The position numbers and the translations under genes were made by a program. The notes below the pieces were generated by a model that was not told the origin of the DNA, made no database searches, and saw only the letters and a program-made list of their open reading frames with translations. From Antrihabitans auranticaus (GTDB lineage Bacteria > Actinomycetota > Actinomycetes > Mycobacteriales > Mycobacteriaceae), in NCBI RefSeq assembly GCF_016481275.1, contig NZ_JAEMNW010000002.1:372001-436000 (forward strand): a stretch of DNA of 64,000 bases, read 5' to 3'. Positions 14,326 through 29,075 of the stretch are shown here, piece by piece; within the stretch, counting starts at the first letter, position 1, and each line of letters begins with the position of its first letter.

Positions 14326-14940
14326 GTGCCGAAAGGAATTCCCGAAGCCGTCCCCGAGGACGGCCTGACCACGCGCCAGCGGCGAAACCTGCCGATTCTG
14401 GCCGTGCACACCGGGCCCGGAAAAGGGAAGTCGACCGCTGCGTTCGGCATGGCACTGCGGGCCTGGAACCAGGGCTTCGACGTCGGTGTCTTTCAGTTCG
14501 TGAAGAGCGCGAAGTGGAAGGTGGGGGAGGAAGCAGCCTTTCGCGCGCTTGGCCACCTGCACGACGAGACCGGCGCCGGCGGCGAGGTCGAGTGGCACAA
14601 GATGGGCGAAGGCTGGTCCTGGACCCGGAAGAAGGGGAGCGACGAAGACCATGCCGCCGCGGCCCAGGAGGGTTGGCGCGAGATCGCCCGGCGACTCGGC
14701 GAGCAGACCCATCGCTTCTACGTGCTCGACGAGTTCACCTACCCGCTCAAATGGGGCTGGATCGACGTCGCCGAGGTCGTATCGGTGCTGGGAGACCGGC
14801 CCGGCAATCAACACGTGGTGATCACGGGTCGCGACGCGCCGCAAGCACTCCTCGACGTCGCGGACCTCGTGACCGAGATGACGAAGGTCAAGCACCCGAT
14901 GGACGCGGGCCGCAAGGGCCAGCGGGGTATCGAGTGGTGA
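14326..14940 (+). CDS. cobO: Cob(I)yrinic acid a,c-diamide adenosyltransferase
   Basis: CobO attaches the upper 5'-deoxyadenosyl ligand from ATP to the reduced cobalt of cobyrinic diamide. The 204-residue protein has the P-loop HTGPGKGKSTAAFG, FQFVKSAKWKVGE, the Trp-rich stretch EGWSWTRKK and the ITGRDAP segment, all typical of CobA/CobO-type enzymes. The GTG at 14326 is 2 bases after the chelatase stop, and the CobO stop overlaps the cobB start as GTGA, so the three are translated as a unit under the B12 riboswitch. Matches Rv2849c. Confidence 0.96.
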   Translation: MPKGIPEAVPEDGLTTRQRRNLPILAVHTGPGKGKSTAAFGMALRAWNQGFDVGVFQFVKSAKWKVGEEAAFRALGHLHDETGAGGEVEWHKMGEGWSWTRKKGSDEDHAAAAQEGWREIARRLGEQTHRFYVLDEFTYPLKWGWIDVAEVVSVLGDRPGNQHVVITGRDAPQALLDVADLVTEMTKVKHPMDAGRKGQRGIEW

Positions 14941-24160: not shown

Positions 24161-24679
24161 TGGCGCAACGAACAGCTCGAGCATCGCGCGTTCTTCCGCG
24201 TCGTCGGAGCCAGGCACGGTCAGCAGTGAAACGATAATGCGCACAGTCCATTTGGCGAGCAACACGTTTCCATCGAAGAATGCGGCGCTCAGTCCCTCGA
24301 TCACTTCCGAAGAGTGCGCAATTTCACTGGCGAGGCCGGCATCGCCGAGCTGAAACCACGCGATCATCGTCGGGTCGGCTCGGACCTCGCGGACCGCGGC
24401 GAGCATTGCCGCGACAGTGCGCTCCCTCAGGTCTGGAATGGTGCTGGTTTCGGCAAGGATCGTCTCGCCCACACGCCTCGCTTCGCGGTGCACGAACGCG
24501 AGTTGCAGCGATCGCCGGCTGTCGAAGTAGCGATACATCGTCGCGCGCGAACAGCCCGCTCGCCGCGCGATATCGGCCATTCCGACCGTCGCAACGCCGC
24601 GTTCGACGAACAACTGTGCTGCAGCGTCGAGAATTCGCTCGGCCGCAAGGTCGTTGCGGTCCTTTTCGAGCCAGTTCAT
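24125..24679 (-). CDS. TetR-family regulator co-transcribed with a P450
   Basis: A 184-residue regulator with HTH GMADIARRAGCSRATMYRYF after ERILDAAAQLF. Its ATG (24679) overlaps the P450 stop as ATGA, so it is the second gene of a P450-TetR operon and probably controls that operon. The ligand domain is short and unassigned. Confidence 0.88.
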   Translation of the reverse strand: MNWLEKDRNDLAAERILDAAAQLFVERGVATVGMADIARRAGCSRATMYRYFDSRRSLQLAFVHREARRVGETILAETSTIPDLRERTVAAMLAAVREVRADPTMIAWFQLGDAGLASEIAHSSEVIEGLSAAFFDGNVLLAKWTVRIIVSLLTVPGSDDAEERAMLELFVAPSIDPSQLDSVE

Positions 24680-25896
24680 TCGTTCACTCGGAACGGGACG
24701 CTGAGCGGTCGGCGGACGTATGGACCCTCGGCGTAGACGACCGCATCGATATCGACCGTGAAGTCGGGGCAGCGGGCCAGCAGTTCCTCGAGTGCGACGC
24801 GTGCCTGCATTCGCGCTGCGGCCGCGCCGAGGCAGTGGTGGTTGCCGTGGCTGAACGTCATGATCTGGCGCGGCTTGCGGAGGACGTCGAGTTCGCCCGC
24901 GTCGGAACCGTATTGGCGCTCGTCACGGTTCGCCGATCCGTAGAGCAGTAGGGTTCGGCGGCCTGCTGGAACGGTGGTGTCGCCGATCTGGACGTCCCGT
25001 GTAGTGCAGCGCGCAAGACCCTGCACCGGGGCGGTGAGTCGCAGCATTTCTTCGACGGCGTCGGTGATCAGTGCGGGGTTGTCGATGAGCTTGCGACGCT
25101 GGTCGCGATGCGTGGTCAGCAACTGGACGGCGCCGCCGAGATTGCCTGTCGTCGTGTCGTTTCCGCCGGTCACCATCGTGAAAGCGAAGCCGAGAATCGA
25201 CAGAATTCCTGCGACGTCACCGTCTGCACCCAGGCCAGATGCGAGCAGGTGCGAGATCGTATCGTCGGCAGGATCGGTCCGGCGCCGATCGATGAGCGCG
25301 GTGAAATACCCCATCAATTCCGTGACGGCCGTGGCGGCCTCGAGGATGTTTCCGCCGGCGCCCGCGGCGACGATGTTCTCGGACCACTCGTCGAAGCGCG
25401 ACCGGTCCTCCTCGGGAACGCCGAGGTAGTGCGCGACCACCATGCTCGGCAGCGGCTTGAAGAGGTCGACGACGATATCGCCCTCACCGGCCGCCTTGAG
25501 TCTTTCGATGCGGTCGACGACGAACTCGCGAACCGCCGGCTCGACCGAGCTGACGTGCCGGGGGGTGAAACCCGATGACACCGACCGCCTGAACGTCGTG
25601 TGGTCCGGTGGATCGGTGAAGACGAAGGGACGATTTTCCGTCATCCCGATCTTCTCGAGGTCGTGATAGTCGGTCGTGATTCCTTGCGCCGACGAGAAGG
25701 TCTCGGGATCACGCGCAGCCGCGAAGACGTCGGCGTACCGGGAGAGGACGTAGTAGTCCTCGTCCGGCGTCTCGGGTGGAACGACTCGGTGGACCGGGTC
25801 GTGGTCGCGCAGGTCGCGGTACATCTGCCAAGGGTCGCGCCAGGATTCCCCGGACCGAGGAACGAACTGAACCTGATGAGACGTCAGCGTCGACAT
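24676..25896 (-). CDS. Cytochrome P450
   Basis: A 406-residue soluble haem monooxygenase. Seen: oxygen-activation region MVTGGNDTTTGNLGG in the I helix, the K-helix EEMLRLTAPVQ with its Glu-x-x-Arg-type pair, and the haem loop FSHGNHHCLGAAAARMQ with the cysteine ligand. ATG 25896 (MSTLTSHQ) gives the normal bacterial length; an upstream in-frame start would run into the repeat array. It needs ferredoxin and reductase partners not found nearby. Its promoter must lie in or near the 25954-26506 repeat array. CYP family number cannot be given from sequence reading; substrate unknown. Confidence 0.93.
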   Translation of the reverse strand: MSTLTSHQVQFVPRSGESWRDPWQMYRDLRDHDPVHRVVPPETPDEDYYVLSRYADVFAAARDPETFSSAQGITTDYHDLEKIGMTENRPFVFTDPPDHTTFRRSVSSGFTPRHVSSVEPAVREFVVDRIERLKAAGEGDIVVDLFKPLPSMVVAHYLGVPEEDRSRFDEWSENIVAAGAGGNILEAATAVTELMGYFTALIDRRRTDPADDTISHLLASGLGADGDVAGILSILGFAFTMVTGGNDTTTGNLGGAVQLLTTHRDQRRKLIDNPALITDAVEEMLRLTAPVQGLARCTTRDVQIGDTTVPAGRRTLLLYGSANRDERQYGSDAGELDVLRKPRQIMTFSHGNHHCLGAAAARMQARVALEELLARCPDFTVDIDAVVYAEGPYVRRPLSVPFRVNE

Positions 25897-25953: not shown

Positions 25954-26506
25954 GTGATCACGAGCATGGGGTCGCCGGCGCGCCGTGTGGCCTCGCCATT
26001 TGGTCGTGATCACGGGGGATGGGAGTGGGGCTGTGCTGATCACGAGCATCGGGTCGACGACGCGCCGTGTGGCCTCGCCTTTTCGTCGTGATCACCGCGG
26101 TTGGGAGTGGGGATCTAGCCTTTTGGTCGTGATCACGGCGGGTGGAGGCTGGGGTCGCCGGTGATCACGAGCATCGGGTCACCGACACGCCGCCTGGCCT
26201 CGCCTTTTGGTCGTGATCACCGCGGTTCGGGGGTGGGATCGAACCATTCGCTCGTGATCACGGTGGTTGGAGGCTGGGGTAGCCGGTGATCACGAGCATC
26301 GGGTCACCGACACGCCGTGTGACCTCGCCTTTTGGTCGTGATCACCGCAGGGTGGGGATCGAGCCATTTGGTCGTGATCACGGTGGGTGGAGGCTGGGGG
26401 TTGCCGGTGATCACGAGCATCCGGTCACCGACATGCCGTGTGGCCTCGCCTTTTCGTCGTGATCACCGCGGGGTGGGTGGGGATCGAGCCATTCGCTCGT
26501 GATCAC
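25954..26506. repeat. Tandem array of five 60-bp GTGATCAC-bounded units with G-rich linkers
   Basis: Five near-identical units, each exactly 60 bp, at 25954-26013, 26036-26095, 26161-26220, 26286-26345 and 26407-26466. Each opens with GTGATCACGAGCAT (the second with CTGATCAC) and ends TCGTGATCAC, so the ends form 10-bp inverted repeats. Linkers are 22, 65, 65 and 61 bp; the longer ones and the tail carry one more GTGATCAC (26129, 26254, 26374, 26499) and runs such as GGTGGGTGGAGGCTGGGG. In all there are 13 perfect GTGATCAC and one variant. It lies upstream of the P450 start and downstream of yaaA. The 640-base gap (25897-26536) has no convincing gene. Not a CRISPR array. Confidence 0.9.
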
Positions 26507-26536: not shown

Positions 26537-27283
26537 TTAGTGGGTCAACACGACCAGTTCGGTGGGCGAGGCGACCTCGACCCTGAACCCCGCCTTCGCG
26601 GCCACCTGCGCGACACCTTTGATGTCGGACGGCTCCGCCCGGCTGACGACCAACGCACGGGCGAGCAGGCCCTTGTGGTGCTTGTTGAAATGGCTGACGA
26701 CGCTGCGGGTGCCGTCGGGCGCCTCGGTGACGACCGTCGCCGTCACTGCGCCGGGCACGCGGCCGAGTTGCTGGTAGATCCCGGACCGCAGGTCGACGAT
26801 CAAGCCGCCGTCGGCTTCGGCAACGAGAGCGGACGTGAGGTCCGTCTTCCACAGGGCAGAAAGCGTGGCGAGGCCCGGCAACTTGGAACCGCCGGACAAC
26901 CGGTAGGCGGGAATCGGATCTGTCGGCCGCACCGCACCGAACAGCGCCGAGCCGATTGCCAAGCGGGCGTTGGCCTTTGCCCGCTGGACACGCGTCAATG
27001 AGCGCGCGTCCAGAGCGTCGAACAGCACGCCCGTGTACCGCTCCAGAGCGGGCCGCGTCGGGCTGGTCCACAGTGTGGCGTTGCGCGCGACCTCATCGAG
27101 TTGACTCGGTCCGAGCCCCAATGCAGCACTGGTCGCGACTGGATCCGCCGCCAACGAGACCAGCGCGTCGACCAGCGACTCCCGGACGAGATTGAGCTTC
27201 GGCATCGACAACGCATCGAGTGTCAGCGGTGCCAACCTTCCGCCGTCCGACTTCGTCTCCGATGGAGGTAGCAGCACAAGCAT
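26537..27283 (-). CDS. yaaA: Peroxide stress protein YaaA (DUF328/UPF0246)
   Basis: A 248-residue protein of the YaaA family. Seen: the N-terminal signature [46 protein letters not shown], and the basic block [15 protein letters not shown]. In Escherichia coli YaaA lowers free iron during peroxide stress and binds DNA. ATG 27283 starts at the signature. Divergent from proS with only 46 bases between starts, so promoters overlap. Identification is firm; role here is by family. Confidence 0.93.
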
Positions 27284-27329
27284 GGGTAGAGGGTACTTGG
27301 GCCCGGAAAGGCAACTAGGCTGCTCACCT

Positions 27330-29075
27330 GTGATTACCCGCCTTTCCCAATTGTTCCTGCGCACTCTTCGTGACGACCCCGCCGATGCCGAGGTGCCGAG
27401 TCACAAGCTGCTGGTCCGCGCCGGTTATGTACGTCGCGTGGCCCCGGGTGTCTACTCGTGGCTGCCGTTGGGCTTACGGGTGTTGCGGCAGGTCGAGCGG
27501 GTCGTTCGCGAGGAGATGGACGCGATGGGCGCGCAGGAGATTTCCTTGCCGGCGCTGCTGCCGCGTGAGCCGTACGAAGCGACGAACCGCTGGACCGAGT
27601 ACGGCGACGCGCTCTTCCGCCTGAAGGATCGCAAGGGCGCCGACTACATGCTCGGGCCCACCCACGAGGAACTGTTCGCTCTGACGGTGAAGGCCGAGTA
27701 CAACTCGTACAAGGACCTCCCGGTCACGCTCTATCAGATCCAGAACAAGTACCGCGACGAAGAACGGCCCCGAGCGGGCATTCTGCGTGGCCGCGAGTTC
27801 GTGATGAAGGATTCGTACTCCTTCGATCTCGACGAGGACGGACTGAAGAAGTCCTACAACGCGCATCGCGAGGCTTACCAGCGAATCTTTGCCAGGCTCG
27901 GCGTGAAATACGTCATCGTCGCCGCGACCTCGGGTGCGATGGGCGGCAGCGCGTCGGAGGAGTTCCTCGCCGAGAGCGAGGTCGGCGAAGACACCTACGT
28001 CCGCTGCGTCGAGTCCGGCTACGCGGCAAACGTCGAAGCGGTCATCACCCATGCGCCGGACGCACGCCCGATCGAAGGCTTGCCCGCAGCCGTGGCTCAC
28101 GACACTCCGGATACGCCGACAATCGCGACCCTCGTCGACTGGGCGAACTCGGCCGATCTGGGCCGGACGGTTACTGCCGCCGACACGTTGAAGAACATCC
28201 TCGTCAAGGTTCGTACTCCCGGTAAGGACTGGGAGTTGCTCGGAATCGGCATACCCGGCGACCGTGAGGTCGACGAGAAGCGACTCGGTGCGTCGCTCGA
28301 ACCGGCGGAATACGAGTTGCTCACCGACGCGGATTTCGCTGCCAACCCGTTCCTCGTCAAGGGGTATATTGGACCGAAGGCATTGCTGGCCAACAAGGTT
28401 CGCTTCCTTGTCGATCCGCGTGTGGTCACCGGCACGTCGTGGATCACGGGCGCTGACCAGCAGGGCAAGCACTACGTCGACCTCGTCGCCGGGCGCGACT
28501 TCGAACCGGACGGCACCATCGAAGCCGCTGAAGTGCGCGACGGCGATCCGTCACCGGACGGCGCGGGCCCGCTGGTTTCGGCCCGCGGAATCGAGATCGG
28601 CCACATCTTCCAGCTCGGTTACAAGTACACCGACACTTTCAACGTCGACGTCCTGGGCGAGAACGGCAAACCGGTCCGACTGATCCAGGGCTCCTACGGC
28701 GTCGGTGTGTCACGCCTCGTAGCGGTGATCGCAGAGCAGAAGCACGACGACAAGGGTCTGCGCTGGCCGTCGGAGGTCTCGCCCTTCGACGCCTATGTCG
28801 TCATCGCAAACAAGGACGAGTCGGCCCGCGCGGGCGGCGAGCAGATCGCGGCCGAACTCGACTCGGTCGGGCTGAACGTCGTGCTCGACGACCGCAAGGC
28901 CTCACCGGGCGTCAAATTCAAGGACTCCGAGCTGATCGGTGTGCCCGTGATCGTGGTCGTCGGTCGCGGCTGGGCGAATGGCCTGGTCGAGCTTCGGGAC
29001 CGTTTCACCGGCGAGAGTCGCGAGCTGCCCGGCGACGAGGTTGTGGCTGCTGTGCAGGCTGCCGTCCGCGGTTAG
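27330..29075 (+). CDS. proS: Prolyl-tRNA synthetase (bacterial type, with editing insert)
   Basis: Class II synthetase that charges tRNA-Pro. 581 residues, matching the family. Motif 1 region near [20 protein letters not shown], motif 2 [20 protein letters not shown], the INS editing domain (about residues 220-400) that clears Ala-tRNA-Pro, motif 3 [13 protein letters not shown], and the C-terminal anticodon-binding domain ending in [17 protein letters not shown] 27330 gives the standard N terminus. Corresponds to Rv2845c; in mycobacteria it is close to efpA, whereas here about 8 kb of accessory genes lie between. Confidence 0.98.

What the first reader, a model, noticed from the sequence alone, without database searches (positions are those of the whole stretch)
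25954..26506. Tandem array of 60-bp units bounded by GTGATCAC, upstream of a P450
Seen: five units of exactly 60 bp whose ends are 10-bp inverted repeats (GTGATCACGA... TCGTGATCAC), with linkers that each hold one further GTGATCAC (except the first). There are 13 perfect copies and one CTGATCAC in 553 bp; the word is otherwise scattered singly (for example in cobO near 14817). The exact 60-bp length and drift between copies indicate selection or recent amplification. It is not a CRISPR array and contains no gene. Possible roles: a clustered binding site for a DNA-binding protein, a nucleoid/partition-type site, a regulatory platform for the P450-TetR operon, or a small non-autonomous repeat family. 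None is established.
Basis: partly seen in the sequence, partly recalled or inferred. Interest (0 to 1): 0.78.

Follow-up and report, generated by a model that had tools for sequence, protein, structure and literature searches.

The report
Palindrome array tied to nuclease gene
The array is a local pile-up of a 60-base palindromic repeat scattered between genes in a small group of soil bacteria, and the repeat looks paired with a nuclease gene that is bracketed by the same repeat, much as in the known REP-RAYT systems but with an unrelated enzyme.

Summary
In detail: five 60-bp units with inverted ends, 13 perfect GTGATCAC plus one CTGATCAC. It is not local. The window's genome (same genus as Antrihabitans cavernicola) holds at least 12 loci with three or more such sites. 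The unit also occurs as dispersed copies in A. cavernicola, two Aldersonia and Skermania sp. ID1734; of 301 family genomes searched, these five alone gave 15 or more matches. Length is nearly fixed: 99 of 118 half-site pairs are 58-61 bp. None of 80 rows lay wholly inside a called gene; convergent gene ends are enriched.

The new result: genes for nucleases with an AbiEi-like N-terminus and a DUF559/MTES_1575-like C-terminus tend to be bracketed by gene-specific ~60-bp palindromes. Upstream and downstream repeats match in 22 of 30 genes against 8 of 200 controls, and palindrome likeness follows protein likeness. In the window's genome one such gene lies between two arrays of the window's own repeat. 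Best reading: a REPIN-like repeat paired with a different enzyme; the window array is a local amplification. Mobilisation is inferred, not shown.

The parts
25954..26013 (+). 60-bp palindromic unit 1
26036..26095 (+). 60-bp palindromic unit 2 (left end CTGATCAC)
26119..26136 (-). single half-site in the linker (arm CCTTTTGGTC before GTGATCAC)
26161..26220 (+). 60-bp palindromic unit 3 (best match of model R1 in the genome)
26244..26261 (-). single half-site in the linker
26286..26345 (+). 60-bp palindromic unit 4
26364..26381 (-). single half-site in the linker
26407..26466 (+). 60-bp palindromic unit 5
26489..26506 (-). last single half-site of the array
26537..27364 (-). YaaA (peroxide stress protein) ORF; the array lies 30 bp beyond its stop codon. 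With start choice by codon use the gene is 26537-27235
24676..25896 (-). cytochrome P450; its probable start is 57 bp from the array. A neighbour, not shown to be functionally linked

Best explanation
The array is a tandem cluster of a dispersed 60-bp palindromic element (called F60 here): two inverted half-sites of about 18-23 bp (GTGATCACGAGCAAATGG...) with a variable middle. F60 behaves like a REPIN: short, palindromic, intergenic, often at gene ends, copied within genomes and sometimes piled into arrays. Its likely cognate enzyme is an AbiEi-like plus DUF559/MTES_1575-like nuclease, encoded in this genome at contig C1:677761-678660 between two F60 arrays; close homologs in four relatives are flanked by F60 or by a variant of it. 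Proposed mechanism (inferred): the N-terminal winged helix binds two inverted half-sites as a pair at fixed spacing, the nuclease domain nicks or cuts, and repair or copying places new elements at neutral intergenic sites; repeated local copying or unequal exchange then builds arrays. Shown by sequence: the family, its nearly fixed length, its placement, and the pairing of nuclease gene and palindrome. Not shown: binding, cutting, transposition, or any effect on the P450.
For: Recurrence in one genome: 12 loci with three or more sites. Five genomes of 301 in the family gave 15-18 matches each (at most 18 candidates per genome were scored, so these are lower bounds). Scan of the 84,980-species collection with total lengths of 38-68 bp allowed: 25 of 32 stretches are Antrihabitans/Aldersonia/Skermania records and 21 of these 25 are exactly 58 bp (60 with the outer bases); the 7 others are 44-66 bp. 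Two copies 1.6 kb apart in A. cavernicola share 70 bp with one mismatch and nothing beyond. Nuclease link: all 7 close homologs found (50% identity or more, 5 genomes) have F60-like repeats or half-sites beside them: full or nearly full 60-bp elements on both sides in five, half-sites on both sides in one (L232), downstream only in one (L231). Four of the seven share no neighbour genes with the others in the stretches compared. For the 30 examined of 41 family members: 58-62 bp inverted repeats on 25 of 60 sides against 10 of 400 control sides, both sides 7 of 30 against 0 of 200; matching repeats up and down in 22 of 30 against 8 of 200; palindrome likeness follows protein likeness, 0 of 5000 permutations as high; within a gene 15 or more of 18 in 15 of 17. 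Residues that look catalytic by analogy recalled from Vsr-like nucleases (E193, E195, D226, E237, D241, H244) are invariant in the 7. AbiEi family proteins bind pairs of 23-bp inverted repeats; for Rv2827c the gap is 13 bp, 59 bp in all (PMC7319586, passages).
Against: Aldersonia kunmingensis has 18 listed F60 matches but only one nuclease homolog at E 1e-10, partial and 34% identical. The palindromes of two close homologs (A. cavernicola L235, G002 L232) were not seen dispersed in 396 kb and 481 kb of those genomes. In A. cavernicola and two congeners dispersed palindromes also sit upstream of some DUF222-HNH genes, so a second enzyme may be involved. The excess of inverted repeats beside the nuclease genes is not sharp in length: 54-57 bp gives 22 of 60 and 63-66 bp 21 of 60 sides, in part the same palindromes measured at other trims. 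No empty site with target duplication was looked at. The AbiEi and MTES_1575 scores are below Pfam's cut-offs, and the PDB profile search found nothing relevant.
Confidence: 0.55

Rival explanations
1. F60 half-sites are operators of a DNA-binding protein (perhaps the same AbiEi-like protein, acting as a regulator or architectural protein); arrays are selected for clustered, phased binding, with no transposition.
For: Spacings between successive cores fit the helical repeat: 109 spacings (distinct within each cluster) give R=0.73 at 10.4 bp with phase near 0; without the 50-54 class n=64, R=0.57. The 31-33 bp linker recurs in four of the five genomes. Paired bases are in general no better kept than in shuffles, so each half seems constrained as duplex DNA. 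At shared places in two Aldersonia species the arms stay while much of the middle changes.
Against: Counting each spacing value once and leaving out the two main classes (n=31), the best period is not significant (0.15 of simulations as good). Placement leans to gene ends rather than promoters: divergent gaps 14 of 80 rows against 89 of 298. The array is absent near the YaaA gene in six relatives. Fixed spacing is also seen in mobile REPINs (71 and 110 bp; PMC3116915, passages).
Confidence: 0.22
2. F60 is a miniature element moved by another enzyme, the DUF222-HNH family (REP13E12-like), some of whose genes also start next to palindromes.
For: In A. cavernicola four DUF222-HNH units share homology that begins at or within a few bases of F60's left end; the three complete ones end at about the stop codon, the fourth runs off its contig. 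Of 24 DUF222 matches there, 6 were fetched by that search and 5 of the 6 have F60 83-84 bp upstream. In G001 3 of 6 fetched (of 13) have another palindrome at 117-118 bp; in G002 3 of 20 fetched F40 loci lie 84-86 bp upstream of DUF222 genes.
Against: The window's genome has large arrays but only two DUF222 matches, neither near F60; none of the 13 fetched DUF222 loci of G000, G021, G044 and G062 and none of the 5 of G002 fetched by protein search has one of the three palindromes next to it. The link is one-sided.
Confidence: 0.1
3. RNA-level role: hairpins at gene ends acting as terminators or mRNA stabilisers, spread by duplication.
For: Units fold better than shuffles (z -3.5 to -7.6 for the six units folded); convergent 24 of 80 rows against 30 of 298 background gaps.
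Against: No excess of compensatory change in A1 nor in four of five genomes tested apart; only the outer arm in G044 reached 0.0125 of shuffles. One terminator-like match around the array against 0.6 expected. No Rfam match in 7 loci. The nearly fixed 60-bp length is not needed for a hairpin.
Confidence: 0.08
4. Chance expansion or assembly artefact.
For: The assembly is in 24 contigs. About half of the 284 GTGATCAC in the genome may be chance: the shuffle mean, scaled to 6.5 Mb, is about 147.
Against: Drifted copies, many loci, five genomes in three genera.
Confidence: 0.02

Closest known systems
REPINs / REP sequences with RAYT transposases (PMC3116915 abstract and passages; PMC3733652 abstract and passages)
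   Same: Dispersed intergenic palindromic doublets with conserved ends and less conserved spacer; fixed spacing; some tandem arrays; mostly downstream of genes; an enzyme gene flanked by the same repeat; particular repeats near particular enzymes.
   Different: No Y1/RAYT match in the seven genomes searched; no GTAG or CGTC foot seen on F60; the paired protein is an AbiEi-like plus DUF559/MTES_1575-like nuclease; half-sites are about 18-23 bp and the doublet is 60 bp.
AbiEi / Rv2827c antitoxin operators (PMC7319586, passages)
   Same: AbiEi-like N-terminal domain (weak scores); paired inverted repeats, about 23 bp each with a gap of about 13 bp; several pairs can stand in tandem.
   Different: An AbiEii toxin gene beside the nuclease was not searched for; the repeats lie on both sides of the gene and are dispersed elsewhere.
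BIMEs of enterobacteria (recalled; named in an abstract)
   Same: Arrays of palindromic units with regular linkers between genes.
   Different: Sequence and unit length differ; binding of gyrase or IHF was not tested.
REP13E12 / DUF222-HNH repeats of mycobacteria (named in PMC10589994, passages)
   Same: DUF222-HNH genes multiply in A. cavernicola with F60 as the left end of the repeated unit.
   Different: That link is absent at the two DUF222 matches of the window's genome.

Membership tests
REP/REPIN with RAYT | RAYT (Y1 transposase) gene in the genome | tested here: not met
   PF01797: 0 of 7 genomes; 5 of 14 control genomes ring
REP/REPIN with RAYT | unpaired GTAG or CGTC foot | tested here: not met
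   F60 units begin and end with the paired GTGATCAC
REP/REPIN with RAYT | inverted doublet at fixed spacing, intergenic, dispersed | tested here: met
REP/REPIN with RAYT | excision or transposition intermediates | not testable with these tools
   no reads held
AbiEi-type operator | AbiEi-like N-terminal domain in the paired protein | tested here: inconclusive
   Pfam AbiEi_4 24.1 bits (cut-off 25) in one of five proteins, 14.7 in another, none in three; PADLOC AbiEi weak, E 0.002, in the G000 protein
AbiEi-type operator | binding to paired inverted repeats | not testable with these tools
   geometry alike only
DUF559/MTES_1575 nuclease | Pfam score over the cut-off | tested here: inconclusive
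   MTES_1575 28-34 bits (cut-off 38.2) in five of five; DUF559 over its cut-off (20.6) in two of five
CRISPR array | fixed repeat with unrelated spacers | tested here: not met
MITE / insertion sequence | target-site duplication at an empty site | not tested
   no empty site was looked for
known RNA family | Rfam gathering score | tested here: not met
   0 matches in 7 loci

The most novel reading that the evidence does not exclude
A new class of bacterial selfish unit: an AbiEi-like/DUF559-like nuclease gene bracketed by two copies of its own ~60-bp palindrome, with specificity changing together in enzyme and palindrome, and with palindromes that can escape as solo copies and arrays. It would be the counterpart of RAYT-REPIN built on an unrelated nuclease, seen here among genes of the seven Nocardiaceae genomes examined and possibly common beyond them.
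Probability: 0.5. Interest if true: 0.87.

Novelty: new variant of a known kind. Interest (0 to 1): 0.74.

Why it matters
Short palindromic repeats are common in bacteria. A 2013 survey tied a dedicated enzyme to GTAG REPs and found none for CGTC REPs (PMC3733652, abstract and passages). A second, unrelated enzyme tied to its own palindrome would suggest that such repeats arise more than once from nuclease genes, would give DUF559/MTES_1575-like proteins (up to 10 matches per genome here; Pfam lists DUF559 as of unknown function) a substrate to test, and makes the question testable with one purified protein and one 60-bp DNA.

Tried and rejected
CRISPR, Rfam RNA and RAYT were tested and dropped. 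Phage, plasmid and IMG/VR origin: the two-armed pattern had no exact match in IMG/VR, one other array of the genome no match in phages, the window array no match in plasmids; the nuclease gave one weak match in 'plasmids' and none in 'phages'. Around that one match (Nonomuraea) the only 40-70 bp inverted repeat in the stretch was a 49-bp one about 1.9 kb away: no support there. RNA hairpin by covariation: not supported. Phasing by unique spacing values: not significant. V2/V3 palindromes as dispersed families: not seen in the samples. Literature: ten searches (GTGATCACGA; DUF222+palindromic; 13E12 repeat+HNH+mobile; REP13E12; REP+actinobacteria+HNH endonuclease; AbiEi+inverted repeats; RAYT/REPIN; DUF559+palindrom; DUF559/AbiEi/endonuclease; Antrihabitans+repeat) listed no title or abstract start that reports this repeat or pairing; one search listed 20 of 65 papers and 20 of 22. 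Passages of four papers were read, no paper in full; subscription journals are mostly not held.

Rows dropped before counts: the duplicate copy of one locus (L059 = L099) and chance pairs at L058, L113:9924 and L064:6450; L053 is counted twice. Only 30 of 41 nuclease matches and 30 of 73 DUF222 matches were examined; of 26 F40 places, 20 stretches were fetched. Control genes came from two genomes (G002, G003) only, while the 30 nuclease genes come from seven. In one search the palindrome threshold was looser, so some calls may be chance, and five genes had hand-picked palindromes, some of them half ones; with all sides compared, 1 of 323 gene pairs under 45% protein identity reached 15 of 18 (0 of 646 with one side against the other gene's). 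G000 pattern counts: the reversed control word (12 hits) is a weak control because it holds CTAG.

Full report
What is there. The window holds five 60-bp units with 10-bp inverted ends between 25954 and 26466, and single sites at 26129, 26254, 26374 and 26499. GTGATCAC occurs 15 times in the window against 1.44 expected, 13 of them in this array. The array lies between the stop of YaaA and the start of a P450.

It is a family. GTGATCAC occurs 284 times in the 6.5-Mb genome; scaling the shuffle mean would give about 147, so single copies in genes may be chance and the clusters carry the signal. DNA, pattern and profile searches and a site count give at least 12 loci with three or more sites, up to 16 sites in 632 bp. 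An alignment of 23 units from two genomes shows the half-site GTGATCACGAGCAAATGG in inverted pairs and a middle that often reads CGACACGCCG. With a sequence-only model, of 301 genomes of the family 11 had a match at E 0.001 and 5 had 15-18 (at most 18 candidates per genome were scored): G000 (own), G003, G021, G044, G062; the other six have one or two weak matches each. Contig lengths identify G003 as Antrihabitans cavernicola, G021 as Aldersonia kunmingensis, G062 as Aldersonia sp. NBC_00410 and G044 as Skermania sp. ID1734. Two other members of the window's own genus, G001 and G002, gave no match. No match to the pattern in IMG/VR, to one array in phages or to the window array in plasmids.

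Length is the most constant feature. A scan of the 84,980-species collection that allowed 38-68 bp found 32 stretches: 25 in these genera, 21 of them exactly 58 bp (two 59, one 57, one 56), and 7 elsewhere at 44-66 bp. Among 118 half-site pairs of 36-110 bp in the fetched loci, 88 are 60 bp and 99 are 58-61 bp. Spacings between successive cores cluster near multiples of the helical repeat: R=0.73 at 10.4 bp for 109 spacings, 0.57 without the 50-54 class (n=64), 0.49 without the 30-33 class as well (n=42). This test suffers from shared descent of array units: with each value counted once and the main classes left out (n=31), 0.15 of simulations did as well. Base pairing between the two halves is in general not kept better than in shuffles (the exception is the outer arm in G044, 0.0125), so duplex DNA rather than an RNA hairpin seems to be the constrained form.

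Placement. Of 80 element rows (one locus counted twice; genes called by my own script) none lay wholly inside a called gene and one had its midpoint inside; 24 were between convergent genes, 40 tandem, 14 divergent and 2 at edges; other gaps of 40 bp or more in the same loci were 30 convergent, 179 tandem and 89 divergent. In several rows the element overlaps the neighbouring stop codon by 3 bp. In three loci both flanking genes are shared between the two Aldersonia species, and some one-flank matches exist, four of them between genera; in the aligned pairs the arms largely stay while much of the middle and of the surrounding DNA changes. No element was found around the YaaA gene of six relatives. 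Two copies 1.6 kb apart in A. cavernicola share 70 bp, the element plus 4 and 6 bp. So copies come and go, but kept ones keep their ends.

The nuclease. One G000 array pair encloses a gene for a 300-aa protein (L048:6759-7661, -) with an MTES_1575/DUF559-like C-terminus and, in two relatives, a weak AbiEi-like N-terminus. Seven close homologs (50% identity or more, the G000 protein counted) exist in G000, G002, G003 (two), G044 (two) and G062. With the F60 half-site at up to 4 of 18 mismatches, 5 of the 7 have it within 0-225 bp. The flanks of the other two carry palindromic repeats of their own: L235 a full 60-bp one upstream and one with a degenerate half downstream, L232 a half-site on each side. 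The second G044 copy carries a variant with the same change on both sides. L231 has only the downstream one. Three of the seven are in the same gene neighbourhood; the other four share no neighbours in the stretches compared. Of 23 distant homologs, one had an F60-like half-site, 775 bp away.

Generality. For the 30 examined of 41 family members in seven genomes, inverted repeats of 58-62 bp lie within 300 bp on 25 of 60 sides against 10 of 400 sides of 200 control genes drawn from 515 (Fisher 3e-17); both sides 7 of 30 against 0 of 200. Neighbouring length classes are raised too (54-57 bp 22 of 60, 63-66 bp 21 of 60). Independently of any palindrome, upstream and downstream DNA share a 20-mer at 17 or more identities in 22 of 30 against 8 of 200 (9e-18). 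With looser palindrome calls in 29 genes, five of them partly hand-picked, the palindromes match within a gene (15 or more of 18 in 15 of 17) but hardly between genes under 45% protein identity (0 of 646 one-side comparisons, 1 of 323 pairs over all sides), and 13 of 82 pairs at 45-70% identity match; palindrome likeness follows protein likeness (Spearman 0.22, 0 of 5000 permutations as high). In 14 of 17 genes with a downstream call the palindrome starts within -23 to +11 bp of the stop codon, which is also where many solo F60 copies stand. An operator upstream and a terminator downstream would not be expected to share one sequence; a mobile or REPIN-like unit would.

Mechanism. AbiEi and Rv2827c bind two 23-bp inverted repeats 3 and 13 bp apart (PMC7319586, passages); 23+13+23 is 59 bp. 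I infer that the nuclease binds the two halves of its palindrome as a pair, which would explain the nearly fixed length, and that its nuclease domain promotes copying. Arrays would follow from repeated copying or unequal exchange. Binding, cutting and movement are untested.

Against this. A. kunmingensis has many F60 copies but no close nuclease gene found in a 330-contig assembly; two nuclease-linked palindromes are not seen dispersed in 396 and 481 kb samples; the one nuclease match outside the family, in Nonomuraea, has no such palindrome beside it; and DUF222-HNH genes are also tied to palindromes in three Antrihabitans species. In A. cavernicola four repeat units of about 1.5 kb begin at or within a few bases of F60's left end, and the three complete ones end at about the DUF222-HNH stop codon, with F60 83-84 bp upstream in 5 of 6 copies fetched of 24; in G001 another palindrome lies 117-118 bp upstream in 3 of 6 fetched of 13; in G002 a third lies 84-86 bp upstream of three, while 5 other G002 copies have none. 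Whether these genes use the palindromes, or only travelled with them, is open.

Verdict. The finding is real and larger than described. The array itself is most likely a by-product of a REPIN-like repeat; I found no evidence that it governs the P450. The valuable part is the pairing of DUF559/MTES_1575-like nuclease genes with gene-specific palindromes, for which the listings of the ten literature searches made here showed no report.

Noticed in passing
G001 and G002 genomes; L201, L207, L213: Another dispersed palindrome (CTCGTGAGTCTTTTCGG..., arms mostly 26 bp apart in G002): 151 half matches in G001, 76 in G002, no exact match in the five other genomes; 117-118 bp upstream of three DUF222-HNH genes in G001.
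   Followed up: partly
G002 genome; L258-L277: A third palindrome (GTGCGTGAGTTTGGCC..., half-sites mostly 21 bp apart), 35 half matches in G002; three of 20 fetched loci are 84-86 bp upstream of DUF222-HNH genes; one lies just beyond YaaA (L190), where the window's genome has its array.
   Followed up: partly
L107, L108, L111:3222, L116 (A. cavernicola): DUF222-HNH repeat units of about 1.5 kb, 80-90% alike, that begin at or within a few bases of the F60 element; the three complete ones end at about the gene's stop codon, L108 runs off its contig.
   Followed up: partly
L182, L183, L185, L153, L151, L161, L171 (Aldersonia, Skermania): Several F60 copies have one outer end replaced by forms such as GCGAGACC or GCGACAAC while the inner arm CGAACAAATGG stays, as if there were two kinds of end.
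   Followed up: no
L131:6970-7020 (Streptosporangium) and L150:5872-5922 (Nonomuraea cypriaca): The same 51-bp inverted repeat in reverse complement, one mismatch, in two genera; perhaps inside a conserved gene.
   Followed up: no
L300:13745 (G002): A lone palindrome TGATCACGGGGAAAAGTACC... of F60 length but with other arms.
   Followed up: no
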